Shown here: one piece after another, positions 49,727 through 50,032 of the stretch
Numbering within the stretch: position 1 is the stretch's first letter
How the letters are laid out: each line of letters opens with the position of its first letter
From: a virus
DNA: 64,000 nt
Direction: 5' to 3' (one strand)
Virus record (IMG/VR): IMGVR_UViG_3300044998_000260
Coordinates: 1-64,000 of that record
The notes under the pieces: generated by a model
What the model saw: only the letters and a program-made list of their open reading frames with translations
What the model was told of the DNA's origin: nothing
The model's database searches: none
Program-made: the position numbers and the translations under genes

Positions 49727-50032
49727 TGCCTGTGGAGGGAGTCGAACCCACACTTCGGAGATTTTCTTACCACTATAACTTTCGTTACATTTCTACCTGA
49801 TTATGATAGAAATTTTTGTGGTCTGGACTATACCTTTACCTTCAACTTTACTTGTTAAGGTACGCGCCGTCTAGTCTCTACACTTTCAATGAGAAAAAAA
49901 ACAGTCTCAAAGCTTAGCTCGGGATTGGCAGTTAAGCTTTCCCCGAATTTGACGCGATTCACCAATCATATTTCTATGATAGTGCTCAAATTTGTTTAAG
50001 TCTCCTGCCTCTGCCAATTGGGCTACACAGGC
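49727..50032 (-). tRNA. tRNA-Leu (UAA) interrupted by a group I intron
   Basis: Exons 49998-50032 and 49727-49765; intron 49766-49997. The spliced 74-nt tRNA has acceptor GCCTGTG/CACAGGC, D stem GCC/GGC, anticodon stem GGAGA/TCTCC, loop CTTAAAA (anticodon UAA) and discriminator A. The T stem has one T-T mismatch. The variable loop is short, unusual for Leu. The intron interrupts after U34, the same place as the cyanobacterial and chloroplast tRNA-Leu(UAA) intron. Confidence 0.9.
49766..49997 (-). other. Group I intron (232 nt) in tRNA-Leu(UAA)
   Basis: Intron begins after a U that forms the U-G pair of P1 (CTTAAA with TTTGAG) and ends in G. Core strings GGGGAAAGC, TGCCAATCCCGAGC, AGAGACTAGACGG and GGTATAGTCCAGA are the P4-P7 core of group IC3 introns. 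No endonuclease is encoded. It should self-splice. Length is close to cyanobacterial tRNA-Leu introns. Confidence 0.9.

What the first reader, a model, noticed from the sequence alone, without database searches (positions are those of the whole stretch)
49727..50032. Group I intron in a phage tRNA-Leu(UAA)
A 232-nt intron with P1 U-G pair, core P4-P7 strings and terminal G interrupts the anticodon loop after U34, the same site as the ancient cyanobacterial/plastid tRNA-Leu intron. Few phage tRNAs carry introns, and no endonuclease is present inside it. It could mean transfer from a cyanobacterial or other tRNA-Leu intron.
Basis: partly seen in the sequence, partly recalled or inferred. Interest (0 to 1): 0.8.

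Follow-up and report, generated by a model that had tools for sequence, protein, structure and literature searches.

The report
Self-splicing intron in phage tRNA-Leu
A phage transfer-RNA gene is interrupted by a self-splicing group I intron, and it turns out to belong to a widespread, mostly unannotated family of such introns in phage tRNA genes, which suggests that phages can spread these ancient elements between tRNA genes.

Summary
On the minus strand, tRNA-Leu(UAA) (49727-50032) is interrupted after U34 by a 232-nt group I intron of tRNA (IC3-like) type at 49766-49997. Support: Rfam RF00028, 64.9 bits; all core helices, with covariation over 43 relatives; the U·G pair in P1; the terminal G; a normal tRNA once the intron is removed.

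The interpretation needs changing on two points.
(1) Such introns are not rare in phages. Pattern scans of IMG/VR plus phage records gave 176 phage-type intron ends; 172 run into a tRNA T-loop and 160 were called as intron-containing tRNAs. About ten tRNA species are involved (mostly Leu-UAA). Isolates Agrobacterium phage Atu_ph07 and Gordonia phage Daredevil carry related introns. Some copies encode HNH or PD-(D/E)XK endonucleases.
(2) It does not derive from the ancient cyanobacterial tRNA-Leu clade (AU p = 0.011). It groups with other phage tRNA introns, and its exons are phage-type, matching intronless cyanophage tRNAs.

A 2014 review states that phage introns occur only in protein genes; a 2019 paper reports 'enigmatic' tRNA introns in Lak megaphages. 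I found no report of this family. Splicing is inferred, not shown. Verdict: real; a phage-borne branch of a known kind.

The parts
49998..50032 (-). exon 1 of tRNA-Leu(UAA), ends with U34
   Evidence: ARAGORN intron mode; spliced fold
49766..49997 (-). group I intron, 232 nt, no ORF
   Evidence: RF00028 64.9 bits; boundaries by ARAGORN, U at -1, terminal G
49727..49765 (-). exon 2 of tRNA-Leu(UAA), A35 to discriminator A73
49985..50000 (-). P1: exon CUU pairs with intron GAG, U34-G wobble at the 5' splice site; the adjacent UUU can pair with exon-2 AAA (P10)
   Evidence: sequence; U-G in 39 and a standard pair in 40 of 42 relatives
49960..49984 (-). P2 hairpin with GAAA tetraloop
   Evidence: all 9 pairs covary
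49951..49956 (-). P3, 5' strand (partner 49863-49868)
   Evidence: 98% of cells paired, all 6 pairs with changes on both sides
49919..49946 (-). P4-P5 domain (P4 49941-49946 with 49919-49924; short P5 49936-49937 with 49928-49929; no P5abc)
   Evidence: 100% of cells paired
49882..49918 (-). P6 (49916-49918 with 49882-49884) with an extended P6a loop
   Evidence: C-G/G-C/U-A covariation
49872..49876 (-). P7, 5' strand (partner 49826-49830), guanosine-binding helix
   Evidence: 99.5% of cells paired; last pair A-U/U-A/C-G
49837..49862 (-). P8 hairpin
   Evidence: the four outer pairs are conserved and covarying
49769..49822 (-). P9.0 (49818-49822 with 49769-49773) enclosing the P9 hairpins; GAAA-capped hairpin 49775-49788
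   Evidence: 96-97% of cells paired with covariation
49766..49766 (-). terminal G of the intron at the 3' splice site
   Evidence: sequence
53178..53687 (-). free-standing HNH endonuclease ORF in the same tRNA array; its HNH domain is related to the HNH encoded inside phage tRNA-Leu introns. Possible trans-acting mobility partner (inferred)
   Evidence: Pfam HNH, PHROG HNH, 41.5% identity over 65 aa to the L009 intron HNH, E 3e-13

Best explanation
A self-splicing group I intron of the bacterial tRNA (IC3-like) type sits in the anticodon loop of a phage tRNA-Leu(UAA). After transcription the intron folds. Its internal guide GAG pairs with exon CUU so that U34 forms the U-G pair, and guanosine bound in P7 attacks after U34. 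The free U34 3'-OH then attacks after the terminal G, joining CUU to AAAA and restoring the anticodon loop CUUAAAA. It is one ORF-less member of a broad phage-tRNA intron lineage that has spread by homing; other members encode, or lie next to, HNH or PD-(D/E)XK endonucleases. Shown here: the RNA architecture, the site, the relatives, the covariation and the phylogenetic placement. Inferred: that it splices in vivo, and that endonuclease-driven homing brought it there.
For: RF00028 64.9 bits. Covariation over 43 introns: 92.6% of cells paired vs 75.1% shuffled, 40 pairs changed on both sides, 0 of 500 shuffles as high; slid structures 28-45%. Free fold z -3.95. Spliced tRNA intact. Same lineage in many phage tRNAs; related introns in isolates Atu_ph07 and Daredevil. 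Intron-encoded endonucleases. Placement among phage tRNA introns, AU p 0.011 against the cyanobacterial clade. Intronless homologous tRNA genes in cyanophages.
Against: No RNA evidence for splicing. The tree rests on 137-138 alignment columns and many forks are unresolved. The T-stem has one U-U mismatch. The host is unknown. The window's own intron has no endonuclease, so its present mobility is unsupported.
Confidence: 0.9

Rival explanations
1. The intron is a transfer from the ancient cyanobacterial tRNA-Leu(UAA) intron: a cyanophage took the intron, or the whole intron-bearing gene, from its host.
For: Same tRNA and same site U34|A35 as the cyanobacterial introns; the tRNA exons resemble those of T4-like cyanophages.
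Against: Window plus cyanobacterial clade rejected, AU p 0.011; nearest introns are phage tRNA-Leu introns L028 and L036. The exons are phage-type, not a host copy. Introns at the same site also occur in proteobacteria, acidobacteria and a Bacilli MAG, so site identity is weak evidence.
Confidence: 0.06
2. The tRNA gene is a decaying pseudogene whose intron no longer splices; the phage relies on the host for UUA decoding.
For: One U-U mismatch in the T-stem; an extended T-rich P6 loop; no transcript evidence.
Against: Every core pair in P3, P4, P5, P6 and P7 is a standard pair and the splice-site signals are intact. The acceptor, D and anticodon stems are perfect, and it is the only UUA-reading tRNA found in the held 105 kb.
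Confidence: 0.05
3. The intron is kept because it benefits the phage, for example by hiding the anticodon loop from host anticodon nucleases until splicing or by timing tRNA release, rather than being a neutral or selfish passenger.
For: Insertion is confined to the anticodon loop across many tRNAs, and ORF-less copies persist.
Against: Bacterial IC3 introns sit in the same loop without any phage. Intronless alleles are common. Endonuclease-bearing copies point to selfish spread. Nothing here tests protection.
Confidence: 0.07

Closest known systems
[quoted passage not shown]
   Same: Same tRNA, same insertion point U34|A35, small ORF-less ribozyme, same core helices
   Different: Separate, well-supported clade; different 3' end (AAGAGAATG vs AGTGGTAAG) and last P7 pair (C-G vs A-U/U-A); AU test rejects union
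Proteobacterial and other bacterial tRNA introns: Leu(UAA), Arg(CCU), Ile(CAU) (the Azoarcus and Agrobacterium types)
   Same: Same architecture and core strings (GUGUAGAGACUAGACGG), GAAA loops on P2 and P9
   Different: Bacterial chromosomal tRNA genes; most sit on other branches, although a few gammaproteobacterial Leu introns fall among the phage introns
Lak megaphage tRNA introns (Devoto 2019, PMC6784885)
   Same: Introns in phage tRNA genes
   Different: Described as 'enigmatic' and, in the text read, not assigned to group I; one may itself encode a tRNA. In Lak-A1 the only RF00028-like match has no tRNA call around it
Group I introns in phage protein genes (T4 td, Twort, crAss-like, Jug phages)
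   Same: Phage-borne group I ribozymes, often with HNH or GIY-YIG endonucleases
   Different: Interrupt protein genes; Hausner 2014 (PMC3984707) states that all phage introns known then were in protein genes. A related core does occur in Pelagibacter phage HTVC120P between two capsid ORFs
Microcoleus phage My-WqHQDG annotated 286-nt tRNA-Arg
   Same: A public phage record whose tRNA-Arg(CCU) annotation spans a 213-nt intron of this kind
   Different: Intron after U36 of the anticodon; annotated only as a long tRNA

Membership tests
Group I intron | Match to the family covariance model | tested here: met
   RF00028 64.9 bits, gathering 50
Group I intron | Conserved P3-P4-P5-P6-P7-P8 core with covariation | tested here: met
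Group I intron | U-G pair in P1 at the 5' splice site and terminal G at the 3' splice site | tested here: met
   sequence
Group I intron | Guanosine-dependent self-splicing | not testable with these tools
   needs in vitro transcription or RNA-seq
Subgroup IC3 (tRNA type) | About 200-300 nt, no P5abc, no P7.1/P7.2, tRNA anticodon-loop location | tested here: met
   structure and length; absence of P5(a-d) in IC3 is stated in PMC11835236
Subgroup IC3 (tRNA type) | Best score with an IC3 subtype covariance model | not tested
   no subtype models held; only the general RF00028
Ancient cyanobacterial tRNA-Leu(UAA) intron lineage | Insertion between U34 and A35 of tRNA-Leu(UAA) | tested here: met
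Ancient cyanobacterial tRNA-Leu(UAA) intron lineage | Groups with cyanobacterial introns | tested here: not met
   AU p 0.011
Phage tRNA intron lineage described here | 3' end GUAACGAAAGUUAUAGURGUAAG and placement with phage introns | tested here: met

The most novel reading that the evidence does not exclude
Phages carry a mobile lineage of IC3 tRNA introns that moves among many phage tRNA genes by HNH or PD-(D/E)XK homing, and that sometimes inserts into, or replaces, introns of bacterial chromosomal tRNA genes. Phages would then be vectors for a class of introns often treated as vertically inherited relics. The Myxacorys chromosomal tRNA-Leu with a phage-type intron (L202) would be one such event.
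Probability: 0.45. Interest if true: 0.75.

Novelty: new variant of a known kind. Interest (0 to 1): 0.6.

Why it matters
The bacterial tRNA intron is a textbook case of an ancient self-splicing element, and a 2014 review placed phage introns only in protein genes. A large unannotated family in phage tRNAs changes that picture. It means that phage tRNA counts are too low, because standard tRNA calling skips these genes, and it gives a concrete vehicle and enzymes for moving tRNA introns between genomes. Isolates (Atu_ph07, Daredevil) make the idea testable.

Tried and rejected
The first core pattern gave only chance hits. RF00028 in multi-record or large-record mode missed several clear relatives, such as Atu_ph07 and Daredevil, so lack of an Rfam hit was not used as evidence of absence. 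ARAGORN in intron mode on dense tRNA arrays joins neighbouring tRNAs into false introns: 6 of 7 calls on the window were such artefacts, so tRNA calls were accepted only where a group I core or motif was present. Cyanobacterial ancestry was considered and rejected. Lak-phage tRNA introns as the same family: not supported by RF00028, but this is a weak test. Plasmid search: only weak matches to Tritonibacter.

Full report
Observation. The window is bases 1-64000 of a 105,488-base virus record. It encodes T4-like baseplate, primase and SbcC-type proteins, a tmRNA and about 45 tRNAs in one array. Ordinary tRNA calling leaves a gap at 49727-50032, where cmscan finds a group I intron, RF00028, 64.9 bits, E 3.4e-14. 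ARAGORN with introns allowed gives tRNA-Leu(UAA) with a 232-nt intron between U34 and A35. Exons: 49998-50032 and 49727-49765; intron 49766-49997, all on the minus strand. Joined, the exons fold as a normal tRNA-Leu(UAA) with a 5-nt variable loop and one U-U mismatch in the T-stem. No ORF of 50 aa or more lies in the intron. It is the only intron-bearing tRNA in the record supported by a group I core, and the only tRNA for UUA that I found there.

Anatomy. From the sequence: exon CUU pairs with intron GAG, giving the U34-G pair of P1. The adjacent UUU can pair with the AAA that opens exon 2 (P10). The last intron base is G. P2 and the last P9 hairpin both carry GAAA loops. I aligned 24 phage and 19 bacterial introns, mapped the helices from the window and counted pairs. 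Of cells, 92.6% pair, against 75.1% when 3' letters are shuffled and 28-45% when the structure is slid. Forty of 53 pairs show changes on both sides; no shuffle of 500 reaches this. P3 varies through all four Watson-Crick types at several positions, and the last P7 pair is A-U, U-A or C-G. An unguided fold recovers most of these helices, z -3.95. There is no P5abc and no P7.1/7.2, as in the IC3 tRNA introns; I had no subtype model to test this formally.

Relatives in phages. The nearest hit among phage records was a 735-kb uncultured phage. It proved to hold a group I intron in its own tRNA-Leu(UAA), 56.6 bits. Scanning IMG/VR with the 3'-end motif ACGAAAGTTATNGTNGTAAG, which contains no exon bases, gave 49 loci where about one would be expected by chance (the chance figure is my own estimate from motif length and collection size). 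Together with the P7-based scan and the phage-record loci, 176 motif hits were examined: 172 are followed by a T-loop signature and 160 are called as intron-containing tRNAs. Leu(UAA) dominates (96), with Arg(UCU), Met/Ile(CAU), Asn, Gln, Ser, Thr, Lys and UCA-suppressor tRNAs; ARAGORN's labels for the rarer ones are sometimes shifted, and I re-read several by hand. The intron follows U33, U34 or U35 in the loci I read, and U36 in the Microcoleus phage tRNA-Arg. Isolates: Agrobacterium phage Atu_ph07 (tRNA-Leu, 278 nt) and Gordonia phage Daredevil (tRNA-Lys, 238 nt); neither has a feature annotated as a tRNA there. The Microcoleus phage My-WqHQDG tRNA-Arg is annotated as 286 nt.

Mobility. Of the 160, 37 introns are longer than 400 nt. 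Examined cases encode HNH endonucleases (L009, L047, L056, L079), an HNH_3 protein (L073) or a PD-(D/E)XK endonuclease (L050). Homologs of the L009 HNH occur in 65 of the phage loci, either inside the intron or elsewhere in the fetched stretch. In L271 the HNH gene lies directly beside an intron-bearing tRNA-Leu, and that 10-kb stretch has four group I matches. In Synechococcus phage S-CRM01 an HNH of the same family overlaps an intronless tRNA-Leu. The window has no endonuclease in the intron but has free-standing HNH genes in the same array; the one at 53178-53687 is 41.5% identical over 65 aa to the L009 HNH. Homing is therefore likely for the family and only inferred for this copy.

Origin. 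On 137 core columns the ancient cyanobacterial tRNA-Leu introns are one clade (92/99). The window sits with phage introns L028 and L036 (90/77), within a set that also holds Atu_ph07. Holding the window with the cyanobacterial clade is rejected, AU p 0.011. Support among phage branches is moderate, and phage and gammaproteobacterial introns interleave. The spliced exons match intronless tRNA-Leu(UAA) of T4-like cyanophages, 89% over 65 nt in P-RSM6, so the intron probably entered a phage-type tRNA rather than arriving with a host gene. Myxacorys almedinensis (L202) has a phage-type intron in its chromosomal tRNA-Leu, near ORFs that I read as lipoyl synthase and tryptophan synthase alpha (by eye, no search); placing it with the cyanobacterial clade is rejected, p 0.005. 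The direction of that transfer is not resolved.

What is known. Hausner et al. 2014 (PMC3984707) state that all phage group I introns known then were in protein genes despite many phage tRNA genes. Devoto et al. 2019 (PMC6784885) report tRNA introns in Lak phages, call them enigmatic and believe them the first in phage tRNAs. A 2026 jumbo-phage survey (PMC13037316) mentions intronic sequences in jumbo-phage tRNAs (n = 262) without typing them; some of those may belong to the present family. The Jug-phage preprint (PMC12363816) describes group I introns interrupting protein genes. The Atu_ph07 paper lists 33 tRNAs and does not mention introns (PMC6102473). I found no description of this family, but subscription journals and most preprints were not searchable.

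Limits. Splicing is not shown. Many contigs are fragments without a known host.

Noticed in passing
31249-32778 (minus strand): IMP dehydrogenase is broken into two genes by a split intein: the N-part (31942-32778) ends in GGG|CFTPEMRVG..., the C-part (31249-31851) starts MKLVKITSIERKHYVGK...VVHN|SLC. It resembles, from memory, the IMPDH-1 'fractured gene' split inteins.
   Followed up: partly
47903-48369 (minus strand): GOLLD RNA, 198 bits, with a tRNA-Ser(GCU) (48228-48302) embedded in it.
   Followed up: no
47207-47279 (minus strand): tRNA with CUA anticodon (ARAGORN labels it Pyl): probably an amber-suppressor tRNA.
   Followed up: no
50202-50276, 50465-50539, 49727-50032 (minus strand): tRNA-Leu(CAA), (GAG) and (UAA) all have short class-I-like variable loops instead of the long arm usual in bacterial tRNA-Leu; cyanophage tRNA-Leu are alike.
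   Followed up: partly
42341-42686 (minus strand): Phage-encoded tmRNA, tag ANPALALAA.
   Followed up: no
L202:3582-3925: Cyanobacterium Myxacorys almedinensis has a phage-type intron in its chromosomal tRNA-Leu(UAA), outside the ancient cyanobacterial intron clade.
   Followed up: partly
L271:1134-5766: Metagenomic phage fragment with four group I matches in about 5 kb of a tRNA array, with an HNH gene beside the tRNA-Leu.
   Followed up: partly
L211:1283-2457: Pelagibacter phage HTVC120P: a related intron core lies between two ORFs both annotated as capsid protein, which suggests an unannotated intron in the capsid gene.
   Followed up: partly
L330:1501-2090: Synechococcus phage S-CRM01: an HNH gene of the intron-encoded family overlaps an intronless tRNA-Leu.
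   Followed up: partly
L179:2545-2797: A Tatlockia (Legionellaceae) MAG contig carries a cyanobacterial-clade tRNA-Leu intron; probably a mis-binned contig.
   Followed up: no
53178-53687, 54457-54918 (minus strand): Two free-standing HNH endonuclease genes inside the tRNA array, plus an HNH-like remnant at 56385-56501.
   Followed up: partly
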